Positions 32,284 to 39,606 of a stretch of DNA of 64,000 bases are shown here, piece after piece. A program made the translations under genes and the position numbers. Origin of the DNA: Bacteroidota bacterium (GTDB taxonomy: Bacteria; Bacteroidota; Bacteroidia; AKYH767-A; OLB10); NCBI GenBank assembly GCA_024643795.1, contig JAHEMF010000008.1, forward strand, positions 1 through 64,000. Reading direction: 5' to 3'. Every line of letters starts with the position of its first letter. Position 1 is the stretch's first letter. Under the pieces are notes generated by a model, which worked only from the letters and a program-made list of their open reading frames with translations, was not told where the DNA came from and did not search any database.

Positions 32284-35200
32284 TTGAAAAAGAGCCTTCT
32301 ACTCCTAATCTTCATTTTCCTGTCCGGTACTACCAGCCTTTGGGCTTCTCACGGAATGGGAGGTGAAATTACCTGGAAATGCCTTCCAAACGGTCAATTT
32401 CAATTTACGATGAAGTTTTATCGTGACTGTAATGGAATAAGCGGTCCAGCCTCGGTTACATTGCAGACCAATCACCCGGTGGGTAACATTCCTTGTAACA
32501 AGATAGCACAGAATGACATCTCACCTGACGGTATTCTGTATAATGGAACCGGAACTTGCGCAACATGCGCACAAGGCGGAACACCAGCCATTCCCGGATT
32601 AGTAGAAGAATTCATCTACCAGTCAGCACCTATTACGCTTGCCGGAGTTCCTCCTGCAGCAGGATGGTATTTTCAATGGGGAACATGTTGCAGAAGTGCA
32701 TCTGTAACCAACCTTATCAATCCTGGTTCTGAAGGATTTCTTTTGAGAGCACTTATGTTCCCATATAACGGCCAAAATACAAGCCCATGTTTTGACTCAT
32801 CTCCATTCTTTGCTGAAAGACCAAGTACGATTATTTGTACCGGTTACCCATATACGTACAACCACAATGCTATTGACCCTGAACAAGATTCACTGGTTTA
32901 TTCATGGGGCCAACCATTGGATGATAATGGTACAGCATTACCTTTTGCAGGTGGCTATAGTGTAAACAGCCAGTTACCTGGCCCTATCCAAAACCCAAGC
33001 AACCAGGCAATAACCTTGGACCCACACACCGGTGAACTGAATTATCTTTCATACACCGGAGGTTACTTTGCTACTGTATTGAAAGTTACTGCCTATAAAT
33101 GTGGAATTAAAGTAGCAGAGATATTCAGGGAGATAAATGTGGTACTTAATTCAAACTGTCCTCCTACCATGGCAGGTGTCCAGAATTTACCTCCTAATGT
33201 AAATGCTCCTTTCTACGATCCGGTTACAGGTTTGCAAACCTCATATCAGGATACAGTTTATGCAGGCGATACTGTGAACTTCTTCCTTAATGCAACAGAT
33301 TTTGACTTTTTCCAAAACGGAACCAATCAAACCATTACTATCGAGGCCTCAGGTAATCAGTTCGGAACCAGTTTTACAAATCCAAACGCCGGGTGCCTGC
33401 TACCACCTTGTGCAACGCTGACGCAAACAGTGCCATTCTCATTTCCTATAGCCGGAGGGGTAGGGTTTAACTGGGTTACTACATGTGACCACGTTGCAGG
33501 TATAAACAGTGTATGTTTCAAAGCATCAAATACGTATACATTCGTTATAAAGGCGACCGACAATTATTGTCCGGCCAACGCTTCTAAATACAGTACGATT
33601 TCTATCACAGTGCTTCCACCACCAGTGCTGGCAGCACCTAAATTGCGCTGTGCATCTGTTAACAATGACGGTAGTGTCTCGCTAAGTTGGACCAAATCCA
33701 CACCAATCGATACTCAGGCAACATTCCATTCTTATGATGTTTATGCATCACTGGCAGCAGCTGGTCCATGGACATTAGTTGATAGTGTTAAAACAGGATT
33801 TAATACTCAGACCTACACTCATAGTGCTGCAAGCATGAATACCTTCTTCGGAACCAATGCACAGCAACAATCTATTTATTATCATATCAAAACCAGATCA
33901 GGTTGTACTAAGGATTCTGTTTCACTGCAAGGAAATGTATTGCGCACTATTAAACTCAATACCGCTACCAATGCAAACATTGAAGCCGTACTTACATGGA
34001 ATGCATTAAGTACACCACCGTTGTCAAGTCATAATTCAAGGTATCTCATTTACAAATCCTATCCATTAGGCTCGCCATGGGTATTACTGGATTCGGCAGC
34101 AGCTTTAACATACACCGATACCACAACCAAACAGATCTGCGATGATTATGTTGCTTATCGTGTTGATCTTCGTGATAGTACGGGATGCGTAAGTAAGTCG
34201 TCAATTGACACTTTACATGTTATCAACAATACACCATCGGTAGCGATCAATCCCGTGAACCCTGCTTTCTGTCAGGGAGGGAATGTGGTTCTTTCGGCAA
34301 GTCCAAGTGCAACATATCAATGGAACACAGGTGCCACCACACAATCGATCACAGTGGCCAGCACAGGAACCTATACCGTATCAGTAACTCAAGCAGGAGG
34401 TTGTACTGCTACCAACTCCACCACGGTTACGGTAAACCCCAACCCTATTCCAAATATAACAGGAATCAATGTGATCTGTCAGGGGCAAAGTACCACCTTC
34501 AATGCAGGTGCATACTCTTCTTTCAGCTGGAGTACAGGAGCCACTACTCAAAATATTATACCTCTTATTGCCGGTACATATACAGTTACCGTTACAGACT
34601 CAAAAGGATGTACCGGAACAGATACACATACACTTACTATTAACAGCAACCCTGTTCCTGTTATTGCAGGTAACTTTACAATATGTTCTGGCCAGAATAC
34701 TACATTGAATGCAGGGGGTTATCCCGGAGTCCAATGGAGCACAGGAGCAACTACGCAAACCATAAGTGTTGGTACTGCAGGTCCGTTCACTGTTACAGTT
34801 ACCAATGGCAATGGTTGTACCGGAACAGCAACTCAGGGTGTAACGGTGAACCCATTACCAACACCTACCATTACAGGTACAACCTCAATTTGTCAGGGCA
34901 CCAATACCACTCTTGATGCCGGCGCAGGATATTCAGCTTACCAATGGAGTACCGGTGCAGCCGCGCAAACCATAAATGTTAGTACAACCACTACGGTAAC
35001 TGTTACAGTTACTGATGCAAAAGGTTGTAAGAACAGTGACACAGAAAGTGTGGTTGTGAATCAGAATCCTACTCCTAACATTACGGGTATAAATGCCATT
35101 TGCCAGGGACAGAACACAACTTTTAATGCTGGTGCCTATTCTTCTTATAACTGGAGTACAGGTGCTACTACTCAAACAGTTAGTTTAAACACTGCAGGTA

Positions 35201-38200
35201 ACTATACGGTAACTGTTACTGATGCGAATGGATGTACAGGAACCGATAATTACACTCTAACAGTTTACAATAATCCTGTACCGGTTATTGCTGGTAATTT
35301 CACAATATGTTCAGGCCAGAATACAACTTTGAATGCAGGTGGATATCCTGGATTCCAATGGAGCACCGGAGCTACTACGCAAACCATAAGTGTTGGCACT
35401 GCCGGACCTTTCACCGTTACTGTTACTAATGCTAACGGATGTTCAGGTTCGACTTCACAGGCAGTTACAGTGAATGCATTACCTACCCCAACCATAACAG
35501 GAGTTACTTCTATTTGTCAGGGCACTAATACAACACTTGATGCCGGCGCAGGATATTCAGCATATCAATGGAGTACCGGTGCCGTGGCACAAACGATCAA
35601 TGTTAATACATCAACAACTGTTACCGTAACAGTTACTGATGGTAACGGTTGTAAAAACAGTGACACGGAAAGTGTGGTTGTGAATCAAAATCCAACACCT
35701 AACATCACAGGAATAAATACAATTTGTCAGGGACAAAACACAACATTCAATGCCGGTGCTTACTCATCTTATAACTGGAGTACTGGAGCTACTACACAAA
35801 CGGTTAGTTTAAACACTGCAGGAAACTATACTGTTACTGTTACTGACGCAAATGGATGTACCGGCACCGATAACTACTCACTTATTGTGTATAGTAATCC
35901 TGTACCGGTGATTTCAGGGAACTTCACAATCTGTTCAGGTGACAACACTACATTAAATGCAGGAGGTTACACAGGCTACCAGTGGAATACAGGTGCAACA
36001 ACACAAACGATAAGTGTGGGGACAGCAGGGCCATTTACAGTTACCGTCACCAATGGAAATGGTTGTACCGGCACCACATCACAAGCCGTAATAGTGAACC
36101 CACTACCTACTCCAAACATTACCGGAGTTGCTTCTATCTGTCAGGGCCAAAGCACTACACTTGACGCAGGGGCGGGATATTCAAATTACCAATGGAGTAC
36201 TGGAGCTGTTGCTCAAACAATTAATGTAAACACAACCACAACGGTTACTGTTACTGTTACTGATGCTAATGGATGTATAAATTCAGATAGTCAGAATGTT
36301 GTGGTCAATGCTAATCCAATACCAAGTATTACCGGCAACACTGTGGTATGCCAAGGCATCAACACAACGTTGAATGCAGGCGCAGGGTACTCTGGATATT
36401 TGTGGAGCACAGGAGCTACTTCCCAAACATTGAATACCGGCACAGCCGGCCCTGTTACAGTTACTGTTACTGATGGCAACGGATGTACCGGAACGGCTGT
36501 AACGAGCATTACTGTTAATGCAGTACCAACTGCTTCAATTAGTGGTATCGACACTATTTGTGACGGACAAGCTTCAAGCTTCAATATCAACTTTGCAGGT
36601 GCACCCGGGCCATACACTTATTCTTACAGTGCCGGTGGCTCTACCGTTGGACCATTAACAACAGGAGCTGCACTTGTTAATACACCGGTTAGCCCAAATA
36701 CTACAACAAACTATAACCTGATTAGCATTTCCAACAATAACTGTACTGGAACAATAAGTGGTACAGCACAGGTTGCAGTCATACCATTACCTACTGCCAC
36801 CTTATCTGGAACTGCTGCTATTTGTAGCGGTGGATCTACCAATCTGGGTATCGCCTTCACAGGAAATGCTCCCTACACTTATACCTATACAGCAGGTGGA
36901 GTGCCGGTAGGACCATTCACTACTAACAATAGCTCCGTAACTATTCCGGTAACACCAGGTGCAACTACAACATACGGACTTACTCCTGTTGTGTCCGGAA
37001 TGGGTTGTGCAGGCTCAACGTCCGGCAACGCTGTAGTTACAGTGAATGCATTACCTTCAGCAACTATTGCAGGCAATAACACTATATGTGCCGGAAATAC
37101 CACTGATCTTACATTGAATTTTGTTGGAACAGGACCTTACACTTACTCTTACTCGAATGGCAGTGTAACTTACGGGCCGTTCACCACATCCAATAATCCT
37201 GAAACAGTAACAGTGAGCCCGGGCACTTCAGTTATTTACAATCTGCTTACCGTATCTGATGCAAACTGTCCTGGTAGTGTTGCCGGTAGTGCCAACATAA
37301 CTGTCAACCCATTACCTACAGCAGCTCTGTCAGGAACAACTTTCATTTGTGATGGCGCTTCAACCAATTTGCAGGTACTGTTCACAGGAACCGGACCATT
37401 CAACTATTCATATAGCGATGGAACCAATACATTCGGACCATTTACTACAAACCAGAATCCATTACAAATTCCGGTTTCACCTAATACAACTACAACATAT
37501 TCATTGCTGAATGTAAATGATGCTAATTGCGTAGGATCGGTATCAGGAGTTGCAGATATTAATGTTATTCCATTACCTACATCAACTTTATCAGGATCAA
37601 CTTCAATATGTAATGGAAGTAGCACAAACATGTCACTCACATTCACAGGCACTCCTCCATTTGAATACTTCTACACTGATGGAAGCAATTCTTATGGCCC
37701 TTTCCTTACAAACAACTTTAATACTACTATCCCCGTCAACCCAACAGTGAGCACATCTTACTCAATCACGTCGGTTACCGGATCAGGATGCGCAGGAACA
37801 CCGGCAGGTGTAGTTGATATTATTGTAAATGATCTGCCTGCTGCAACGGCTACATTAACCGGTAATGGTGTGATATGTGAAGGTGAATCTTCGCAAGTGA
37901 CTGTAGACTTTACCGGAACATCACCATTCACCTATGAATACACTGATGGATCTAATGTTTATGGACCATTTACTACCAATAACAATTCAGAAGTACTTCC
38001 GGTGAGCCCAGTTACCACTACCACTTATTCACTTGTAAGCGTAACAGATGTTAACTGTCCTGGATCTGTATCAGGAACCGCACAAGTAATTGTTAATCCA
38101 TTACCTACAGCTGCTGCTTCTGCCAGTATTGCAATATGTGATGGGTCATCAACTTCATTCAATATCAATTTTACAGGGACAGGCCCATTCACTTACACAT

Positions 38201-39606
38201 ACAGTGATGGTAGCACAACGCTGGGACCATTCACTACCTCAAATAATCCGGAAGTGATAAATGTTACTCCTACTGTTACTACTTCATATTCTATGCTTTA
38301 CATCTCAGATGCTAATTGTGTAGGAACTGCAAGTGGTGTTGTAGATGTTACAGTGAATCAAATTCCAACAGGAGTTATAGCTGGAAATTCAACGATTTGC
38401 GAAGGTGAAAACACAGCATTTAATTTGAACTTCACCGGAGTAGCACCATTCAACTATAGTTATAGCGATGGCAACACAACATATGGTCCATTCACCACCA
38501 ACAATGCCAGCAACTCCATAACTGTTTCGCCATCTGTTACCACGAATTTCACACTTGTAAATCTGAATGACCTGAATTGTCCGGGTATCATTAGCGGTAA
38601 TGTACAGGTAACAGTTAATCCTTTACCTGAACCTGTAATAACAGGTGACCTGGCCATCTGTGACGGAGAAACCACAGAGCTGAATGCAACCACAGGATTC
38701 ATTACCTACGACTGGTCTAATGGAGCAAACCAAGCATCTATCCTTACCGGAACCGGCGGTATTTATACCGTTACAGTTACCGATCAAAATGGATGTAGCG
38801 GCACCTCACCGGCAGTTAACCTGGTGGTTAATGCTGTTCCGGTAGTTAGCTTCACAAACGACACTACCTTAGATTGCTCTATTCCAAGTGTTACTTTCAC
38901 AAACACTTCCACTTATGATCCGGGTTCTGTTTTTGAGTGGGACTTTGGCGATGGCTTCACATCAGGTCAAGCTAACCCATCTCATGTATATGATAATCCA
39001 GGTCTTTATCAGGTATCTCTTATAATAACAACTCCGGCCGGATGTACCAATCAGCTCTCTCAGCCAGTTGATGTTGTTTTCTACCCGTTGGCCGATGCTG
39101 ATTTTATAGCTGATCCCAACATCACTAATGTATTCAATGCAAGAATCCAATACACCGATCTTTCTAAATACGCCGTAAGTTGGTTATGGGAATTTGGAGA
39201 TGGAAGTACATCCACTGAACAGAATCCGATCCATTACTTCAATGATGTTGGTGATTACAAGACCCGCTTGACCGTTTATAACATTGCCGGTTGCCCGGAT
39301 GTGAGAGAACTTCCGATAGTAATCAATCCATTCTATGTACCAAATGCCTTCACACCAAACACCGATGGCATTAACGACTACTTCTTTGATGCAGGTTATG
39401 TACTTGATGTTGCGGATTTCAGAATGCTGATCTTCAACCGTTGGGGACAAGAGGTATATGAAGCAGATAACTACAACAAGTTCTGGAACGGTGAAGATAA
39501 TGACGGAAATGAGGCACCACAGGGCGTTTATGTGTATCGGATCGATGTTAAAACAAAAGGTGGAAAATCACACACATTTAACGGTACCGTAACGTTGTTA
39601 AGGTAA
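32284..39606 (+). CDS. Giant Ig-repeat surface protein with T9SS type B signal
   Basis: A 2440-residue exported adhesin-like protein starting with TTG; the signal peptide MKKSLLLLIFIFLSG follows at once and no ATG precedes it. Residues ~22-300 form the ASHGMGGEITWK/FYRDC/CCR domain shared with the protein at 4128. Then come FN3-like segments (about 440-640), 11 Ig-like modules of 69-70 residues (xWSTGATTQT type), eight modules of 86-89 residues (ICxG...FNINFTGTGPFTY type), one more of the first type, and two PKD domains (VFEWDFGDG, WLWEFGDGS). The CHU_C type B sorting domain ends it (YVPNAFTPNTDGINDYF, IFNRWGQEVYEA). A role in adhesion or gliding is inferred from architecture. Confidence 0.88.
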   Translation: MKKSLLLLIFIFLSGTTSLWASHGMGGEITWKCLPNGQFQFTMKFYRDCNGISGPASVTLQTNHPVGNIPCNKIAQNDISPDGILYNGTGTCATCAQGGTPAIPGLVEEFIYQSAPITLAGVPPAAGWYFQWGTCCRSASVTNLINPGSEGFLLRALMFPYNGQNTSPCFDSSPFFAERPSTIICTGYPYTYNHNAIDPEQDSLVYSWGQPLDDNGTALPFAGGYSVNSQLPGPIQNPSNQAITLDPHTGELNYLSYTGGYFATVLKVTAYKCGIKVAEIFREINVVLNSNCPPTMAGVQNLPPNVNAPFYDPVTGLQTSYQDTVYAGDTVNFFLNATDFDFFQNGTNQTITIEASGNQFGTSFTNPNAGCLLPPCATLTQTVPFSFPIAGGVGFNWVTTCDHVAGINSVCFKASNTYTFVIKATDNYCPANASKYSTISITVLPPPVLAAPKLRCASVNNDGSVSLSWTKSTPIDTQATFHSYDVYASLAAAGPWTLVDSVKTGFNTQTYTHSAASMNTFFGTNAQQQSIYYHIKTRSGCTKDSVSLQGNVLRTIKLNTATNANIEAVLTWNALSTPPLSSHNSRYLIYKSYPLGSPWVLLDSAAALTYTDTTTKQICDDYVAYRVDLRDSTGCVSKSSIDTLHVINNTPSVAINPVNPAFCQGGNVVLSASPSATYQWNTGATTQSITVASTGTYTVSVTQAGGCTATNSTTVTVNPNPIPNITGINVICQGQSTTFNAGAYSSFSWSTGATTQNIIPLIAGTYTVTVTDSKGCTGTDTHTLTINSNPVPVIAGNFTICSGQNTTLNAGGYPGVQWSTGATTQTISVGTAGPFTVTVTNGNGCTGTATQGVTVNPLPTPTITGTTSICQGTNTTLDAGAGYSAYQWSTGAAAQTINVSTTTTVTVTVTDAKGCKNSDTESVVVNQNPTPNITGINAICQGQNTTFNAGAYSSYNWSTGATTQTVSLNTAGNYTVTVTDANGCTGTDNYTLTVYNNPVPVIAGNFTICSGQNTTLNAGGYPGFQWSTGATTQTISVGTAGPFTVTVTNANGCSGSTSQAVTVNALPTPTITGVTSICQGTNTTLDAGAGYSAYQWSTGAVAQTINVNTSTTVTVTVTDGNGCKNSDTESVVVNQNPTPNITGINTICQGQNTTFNAGAYSSYNWSTGATTQTVSLNTAGNYTVTVTDANGCTGTDNYSLIVYSNPVPVISGNFTICSGDNTTLNAGGYTGYQWNTGATTQTISVGTAGPFTVTVTNGNGCTGTTSQAVIVNPLPTPNITGVASICQGQSTTLDAGAGYSNYQWSTGAVAQTINVNTTTTVTVTVTDANGCINSDSQNVVVNANPIPSITGNTVVCQGINTTLNAGAGYSGYLWSTGATSQTLNTGTAGPVTVTVTDGNGCTGTAVTSITVNAVPTASISGIDTICDGQASSFNINFAGAPGPYTYSYSAGGSTVGPLTTGAALVNTPVSPNTTTNYNLISISNNNCTGTISGTAQVAVIPLPTATLSGTAAICSGGSTNLGIAFTGNAPYTYTYTAGGVPVGPFTTNNSSVTIPVTPGATTTYGLTPVVSGMGCAGSTSGNAVVTVNALPSATIAGNNTICAGNTTDLTLNFVGTGPYTYSYSNGSVTYGPFTTSNNPETVTVSPGTSVIYNLLTVSDANCPGSVAGSANITVNPLPTAALSGTTFICDGASTNLQVLFTGTGPFNYSYSDGTNTFGPFTTNQNPLQIPVSPNTTTTYSLLNVNDANCVGSVSGVADINVIPLPTSTLSGSTSICNGSSTNMSLTFTGTPPFEYFYTDGSNSYGPFLTNNFNTTIPVNPTVSTSYSITSVTGSGCAGTPAGVVDIIVNDLPAATATLTGNGVICEGESSQVTVDFTGTSPFTYEYTDGSNVYGPFTTNNNSEVLPVSPVTTTTYSLVSVTDVNCPGSVSGTAQVIVNPLPTAAASASIAICDGSSTSFNINFTGTGPFTYTYSDGSTTLGPFTTSNNPEVINVTPTVTTSYSMLYISDANCVGTASGVVDVTVNQIPTGVIAGNSTICEGENTAFNLNFTGVAPFNYSYSDGNTTYGPFTTNNASNSITVSPSVTTNFTLVNLNDLNCPGIISGNVQVTVNPLPEPVITGDLAICDGETTELNATTGFITYDWSNGANQASILTGTGGIYTVTVTDQNGCSGTSPAVNLVVNAVPVVSFTNDTTLDCSIPSVTFTNTSTYDPGSVFEWDFGDGFTSGQANPSHVYDNPGLYQVSLIITTPAGCTNQLSQPVDVVFYPLADADFIADPNITNVFNARIQYTDLSKYAVSWLWEFGDGSTSTEQNPIHYFNDVGDYKTRLTVYNIAGCPDVRELPIVINPFYVPNAFTPNTDGINDYFFDAGYVLDVADFRMLIFNRWGQEVYEADNYNKFWNGEDNDGNEAPQGVYVYRIDVKTKGGKSHTFNGTVTLLR
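34453..36324 (+). repeat. Three copies of a 624-bp coding super-repeat
   Basis: Units begin at 34453, 35077 and 35701, and the next module starts at exactly 36325, so the period is exactly 624 bp (208 codons) three times. Each unit holds three Ig-like modules of 69, 69 and 70 residues, starting NITGIN, VIAGN/VISGN and TITG/NITGV. All share CxGxNTTxNAG, a WSTGA core and TVTVTD/N...GC. Confidence 0.9.
36535..38634 (+). repeat. Eight second-type Ig-like repeats (258-267 bp)
   Basis: Unit starts are 36535, 36799, 37063, 37324, 37585, 37852, 38116 and 38374. Each codes for 86-89 residues with ICxGxxT, FxGTGPFxYxYxDG, YGPFTTxNN, VSPxTTTxYxL and NCxGxxSG, joined by short proline linkers (NPLPTA). 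Confidence 0.88.

What the first reader, a model, noticed from the sequence alone, without database searches (positions are those of the whole stretch)
35131..35877. Repeat copies identical in protein but diverged at synonymous sites
Comparing 35131-35253 with 35755-35877 (41 codons, same place in copies 2 and 3), I count 15 codon changes, all synonymous, and no amino-acid change. Recent gene conversion would leave identical DNA. Instead the protein is held constant while codons drift, so either selection on the module is strong or codon diversity is favoured because it reduces recombination between repeats.
Basis: seen in the sequence. Interest (0 to 1): 0.6.

Follow-up and report, generated by a model that had tools for sequence, protein, structure and literature searches.

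The report
Old tandem duplication, protein under purifying selection
Two repeat copies in a large bacterial surface protein have the same amino acids but different silent codons because they were duplicated long ago and selection kept only the protein unchanged; this is ordinary molecular evolution, with no sign that codon differences themselves are selected.

Summary
They lie in modules A2 and A3 of an A-B-C-A-B-C-A-B-C array of about 69-aa Ig-like modules (Pfam Ig_7), inside a 2440-aa T9SS type-B-sorted protein of a Bacteroidota draft genome.

The cause is an old tandem duplication of a 624-bp unit (B1-C1-A2 to B2-C2-A3), followed by ordinary purifying selection: dS 1.09, dN 0.042, dN/dS 0.038 [0.020-0.062]. 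Orthologues in two sister species of another genus give the same constraint (0.034-0.053), and their synonymous rate is the same in the array as in the non-repetitive N-terminus (0.311 against 0.314).

Codon diversification to block recombination is not supported. The pair differs at fewer codons than a random codon draw (15 against 21.3). Older module pairs sit at or slightly below saturation, and 0 of 173 pairs in 19 arrays significantly exceed it. The longest identical DNA run, 26 nt, is what chance gives.

The 41 codons were the best stretch of a generally conserved unit (run-length P = 0.08). Ordinary; low interest.

The parts
32284..39606 (+). ORF of 2440 aa: N-terminal domain of about 650 aa, 11 modules of 69-70 aa, 8 modules of about 87 aa, one further C-terminal module, 2 PKD domains, CHU_C / T9SS type-B sorting domain
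34237..34443 (+). module m01 (first 69-aa module, orthologous to m01 of G009/G014)
34444..34650 (+). module A1 (m02)
34651..34857 (+). module B1 (m03)
34858..35067 (+). module C1 (m04)
35068..35274 (+). module A2 (m05), holds the first stretch of the finding (35131-35253)
35275..35481 (+). module B2 (m06)
35482..35691 (+). module C2 (m07)
35692..35898 (+). module A3 (m08), holds the second stretch of the finding (35755-35877)
35899..36105 (+). module B3 (m09), orthologous in register to m09 of G009/G014
36106..36315 (+). module C3 (m10), orthologous in register to m10 of G009/G014
36316..36525 (+). module m11, outside the A-B-C super-repeat
34651..35274 (+). first copy of the youngest duplicated unit (B1-C1-A2), boundaries approximate
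   Evidence: lowest amino-acid and synonymous divergence at lag 624 runs from about 34610 to about 35250; module trees
35275..35898 (+). second copy of the youngest duplicated unit (B2-C2-A3), boundaries approximate

Best explanation
The stretches are corresponding parts of two modules (A2 and A3) produced by an old tandem duplication of a 624-bp, three-module unit (B-C-A) in a large T9SS-exported surface protein. The likely history has two steps. An A-B-C triple duplicated once, giving A1 and B3-C3 as outer copies. Then the inner B-C-A unit duplicated again. Both steps followed the split from the genus of G009/G014. Since then no gene conversion has reset the pair, synonymous sites have drifted to about one substitution per site, and purifying selection on the folded module removed about 96% of amino-acid changes. 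Shown: the divergence values, the tree order, and the equal constraint on orthologues. Inferred: that the modules form a stalk or adhesive filament on the cell surface whose fold and module contacts are what selection preserves.
For: Exact observation. Unit B1C1A2|B2C2A3: 190/208 aa identical, dS 1.09, dN 0.042, dN/dS 0.038 [0.020-0.062]. Old pairs (A1|A2, B2C2|B3C3 and so on) are saturated or nearly so at synonymous sites with dN 0.08-0.18. The three module trees agree, (A1,(A2,A3)), (B3,(B1,B2)) and (C3,(C1,C2)), with the B and C clades sister to m09 and m10 of G009/G014. Orthologue dN/dS in the same array between the sister species G009 and G014 is 0.053, or 0.034 for m05-m11, so the paralogue value is the ordinary level of constraint. 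Array dS equals N-terminal dS, 0.311 and 0.314. Module pairs in related arrays span pS 0.11-0.82, as expected for duplications of all ages.
Against: A few signs are not a plain duplication clock. Synonymous divergence between G009 and G014 varies from module to module (pS 0.11-0.42). An L/V difference is swapped between m05 and m08 of the two species, which may be a short conversion. The 69-aa array has the same number of modules in both genera despite the G000-specific duplications, so losses or non-reciprocal replacement must be assumed. Support for the B pair is only 87/73.
Confidence: 0.93

Rival explanations
1. Codon diversity itself is selected: synonymous differences between copies are favoured because they stop homologous recombination that would delete or homogenise modules.
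For: The copies are diverged at synonymous sites and the array has the same module number in two genera. Long exact matches are absent, the longest in the array being 26 nt.
Against: Codon mismatch is below random draw for this pair (15 against 21.3) and near or below it for old pairs (102 against 100.0; 87 against 98.0). 0 of 173 pairs in 19 arrays have z above 1.64. Exact-run length matches chance, 26 against 25.4. Synonymous rate in the array equals that of the unique N-terminus in G009/G014. In G004/G031 and G003/G011 the array regions are not faster than the N-terminus. Recently duplicated, nearly codon-identical arrays persist (L137, pS 0.13).
Confidence: 0.03
2. The copies were homogenised by an old gene-conversion tract, not by a duplication, with later synonymous drift under the same purifying selection.
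For: The 69-aa array has the same module number in G000 and G009/G014, although G000 modules resemble each other more than their positional orthologues; conversion would keep the number constant. In G009/G014 only module m05 resembles m08 (84% aa), not its neighbours.
Against: Three adjacent modules B, C and A all show the same reduced divergence at the same 624-nt lag, in a phase that fits one unit duplication, and all three trees agree. A conversion tract would have to span the same 624 bp. The two cannot be fully separated without intermediate species; for the finding they have the same consequence, an old homogenising event followed by purifying selection.
Confidence: 0.15
3. Assembly or binning artefact: copies from different strains were joined into one array.
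For: The window is from a 110-contig draft genome, and contigs of relatives can end inside such arrays.
Against: dS of about 1 or more between copies is far above strain-level difference; the array lies in one open frame with conserved synteny and nearly the same total protein length as in two independently assembled genomes.
Confidence: 0.01

Closest known systems
PF19081 Ig_7, 'Ig-like domain CHU_C associated'
   Same: The module array matches with E 8.4e-10, six stretches, above the curated cut-off (39.3 against 27.3 bits); found together with a CHU_C sorting domain as here
   Different: Single 69-aa modules score below the cut-off on their own (15-20 bits); modules are shorter than the 84-position profile
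Grappling hook protein A (GhpA) of Aureispira sp. CCB-QB1 (PDB 9flp, 9flu, 9flw, 9g8b and others)
   Same: Array residues 632-1433 match GhpA with E 1.8e-81, the module profile matches it repeatedly, and the predicted module matches GhpA fragments with TM up to 0.78. GhpA profile matches also recur every 249 residues, three modules
   Different: GhpA is 5898 residues with modules of about 83 aa; the best match covers only the module array. No evidence that the window protein forms hooks
T9SS type-B (TIGR04131 / CHU_C) secreted surface proteins of Bacteroidota
   Same: C-terminal sorting domain, 44.7 bits against cut-off 35
   Different: No difference tested
Tandem-repeat surface proteins evolving by segmental duplication under purifying selection (general knowledge)
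   Same: Low dN/dS between copies, range of copy ages, higher-order repeat units
   Different: Nothing clearly different

Membership tests
PF19081 Ig_7 module | Profile score above the curated cut-off for the protein | tested here: met
   39.3 bits against 27.3 for window 34447-36510; single modules fall below it
PF19081 Ig_7 module | All-beta Ig/PKD-like sandwich | tested here: inconclusive
   AlphaFold model all-beta but mean pLDDT 69; top PDB matches are PKD domains and GhpA
T9SS type-B sorted protein | C-terminal TIGR04131/CHU_C domain above cut-off | tested here: met
T9SS type-B sorted protein | Secretion and surface attachment by the type IX system | not testable with these tools
   needs experiment
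GhpA (grappling hook protein A) | Relatedness over the module array | tested here: met
   E 1.8e-81 over query 632-1433
GhpA (grappling hook protein A) | Full-length architecture including hook and base | tested here: inconclusive
   The best match covers only residues 632-1433 of 2440; the other six matched stretches were not examined
Repeat array under codon-diversifying selection | Codon mismatch between copies above saturation, or synonymous rate above unique regions | tested here: not met

The most novel reading that the evidence does not exclude
Selection against recombination in long surface-protein arrays acts weakly on codons and only speeds the first phase of synonymous divergence after a duplication, so that the arrays that survive are those whose copies diverged quickly. 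Such an effect, not exceeding saturation, is not fully excluded by between-copy counts, although sister-species rates show no sign of it.
Probability: 0.03. Interest if true: 0.6.

Novelty: already known. Interest (0 to 1): 0.12.

Why it matters
It matters little as a new phenomenon: low dN/dS between old repeat copies is standard. The useful result is a worked test showing that protein-identical, codon-different repeat copies need no selection on codons, plus a resolved duplication history for an Ig_7 array related to the modules of the solved grappling hook protein GhpA.

Tried and rejected
Codon-avoidance between copies: rejected by codon shuffles in this array and in 19 arrays. Avoidance of long identical DNA tracts: rejected, 26 nt against null 25.4. 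Faster synonymous evolution in the array: rejected against the N-terminus; flanking genes range from dS 0.13 to 0.37 and bracket it. Recent conversion at this pair: rejected, dS about 1.1. A first scan of genome contigs with the N-terminal domain found nothing; a scan with an alignment found 15 loci, apparently including the contigs of G009 and G014, but none closer to the window's genome than those. Loci L105-L107, one from a 1.3-Mb contig, have no internal repeats of the required similarity, so they could not serve as an assembly-bias control. Paper searches for precedents on codon choice against repeat recombination returned nothing on point by title and abstract; no paper was read in full.

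Full report
WHAT IS THERE. The two stretches named in the finding are exactly as described: 41 codons each, the same peptide, 15 codon differences, all third-position and synonymous. They are 624 nt apart in one open reading frame, 32284-39606 on the + strand, 2440 aa. The protein has an N-terminal part of about 650 aa with no Pfam family above cut-off, an array of 11 modules of 69-70 aa (34237-36525), a series of about 87-aa modules that match Pfam's POM152 Ig-like profiles, two PKD domains and a C-terminal CHU_C / T9SS type-B sorting domain. The 69-aa modules match Pfam Ig_7 ('CHU_C associated') as an array. Modules m02 to m10 form the order A1 B1 C1 A2 B2 C2 A3 B3 C3. The finding compares A2 with A3.

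HISTORY. At a lag of 208 codons, divergence is lowest from about 34610 to about 35250, in phase B-C-A, not A-B-C. This unit, B1C1A2 against B2C2A3, has 190 of 208 residues identical, dS 1.09, dN 0.042. All other pairs of like modules are older, at or near synonymous saturation. The module tree gives the same order for all three classes: (A1,(A2,A3)), (B3,(B1,B2)), (C3,(C1,C2)). The B and C clades of this genome are sisters of modules m09 and m10 of the syntenic orthologues in G009 and G014, two species of another genus of the same family. Both duplications therefore most likely followed the split of the two genera. The age of the pair in the finding, dS about 1.1, is some three and a half times the divergence between G009 and G014 (dS about 0.31).

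CONSTRAINT. Over the duplicated unit dN/dS is 0.038, bootstrap 0.020-0.062. Between G009 and G014 the same array has 0.053 [0.033-0.080], or 0.034 for m05-m11, against 0.024 in the N-terminus and 0.013-0.052 in three neighbouring genes. So the paralogue value is the ordinary constraint on this protein. The 52-codon run without amino-acid change is the longest in the unit and is not unusual given 18 changes in 208 codons, P = 0.083.

CODON DIVERSITY AS A TARGET OF SELECTION. Four tests, all negative. (1) At shared residues the finding's pair differs at 15 of 40 codons, where shuffling synonymous codons gives 21.3; the copies still share codons by descent. The whole unit gives 77 against 111.2. 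Old pairs, pooled in two groupings, give 102 against 100.0 and 87 against 98.0: at saturation, or slightly below, not significantly above it. (2) Across 173 module pairs from 19 arrays of this and related genomes, none exceeds its null by z 1.64; 88 lie below -2. (3) The longest exact DNA identity between the unit copies is 26 nt; shuffling codon order gives 25.4. (4) If codon change were favoured, synonymous rates would be raised in the array. Between G009 and G014 they are 0.311 in the array and 0.314 in the N-terminus; in G004/G031 and G003/G011 the repeat regions are not faster than the N-terminus. These tests do not exclude a weak early acceleration right after duplication.

GENERALITY AND A CAVEAT. 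Module pairs with at least 82% amino-acid identity in related arrays range from pS 0.11 to 0.82, including a recent duplication in G011 (L028, L137). Most pairs are old. Part of this may be assembly bias: contigs of relatives (G061, G030) end inside arrays (see also coordinates), and DNA-identical arrays are the ones that short-read assembly would break or collapse. The frequency of recent duplicates in these draft genomes is therefore a lower bound (inference).

WHAT IT WORKS LIKE. The AlphaFold model of one module is all-beta, with moderate confidence, pLDDT 69; its best solved matches are PKD domains and fragments of the Aureispira grappling hook protein GhpA, which also matches the array by sequence, E 1.8e-81. 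The likely role is a long, T9SS-exported surface filament or adhesin (inference). GhpA's modules show a three-module recurrence of 249 residues in the profile matches, and arrays in several relatives repeat every 208-210 codons. Whether the three-module period is structural or a record of duplication was not tested.

VERDICT. Of the two readings offered, strong purifying selection is right and codon diversification is not supported. The case is ordinary.

Noticed in passing
L022, L024, L025, L026, L028, L031, L044; window 34444-36315: A higher-order period of three modules (208-210 codons, 224-225 in L044) recurs in arrays of different genera, and profile matches to the solved protein GhpA recur every 249 residues, also three modules.
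   Followed up: partly
36526-38640: The 87-aa modules match Pfam's eukaryotic nucleoporin POM152 Ig-like family strongly (PF24312, 2.6e-45, eight stretches).
   Followed up: no
G061 C2 end, G030 C6 start and C10 end (L134-L136): Contigs of related draft genomes end inside such repeat arrays, so surveys of array age in draft genomes are biased towards codon-diverged copies.
   Followed up: partly
L051 and L052, modules m05 and m08: An L/V difference at module position 34 is swapped between m05 and m08 in the two sister species, perhaps a short conversion.
   Followed up: no
34237-36525: The 69-aa array has the same number of modules in the window's genome and in G009/G014 although the modules were re-duplicated within the window's lineage.
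   Followed up: partly
G000 C100 35424-40424 (L138): The same genome has a second large protein with related modules, 52-58% identical to this array, whose own modules show no close internal repeats.
   Followed up: no
1-222: Tandem repeat with a 102-bp unit, 2.2 copies, 96% matches.
   Followed up: no
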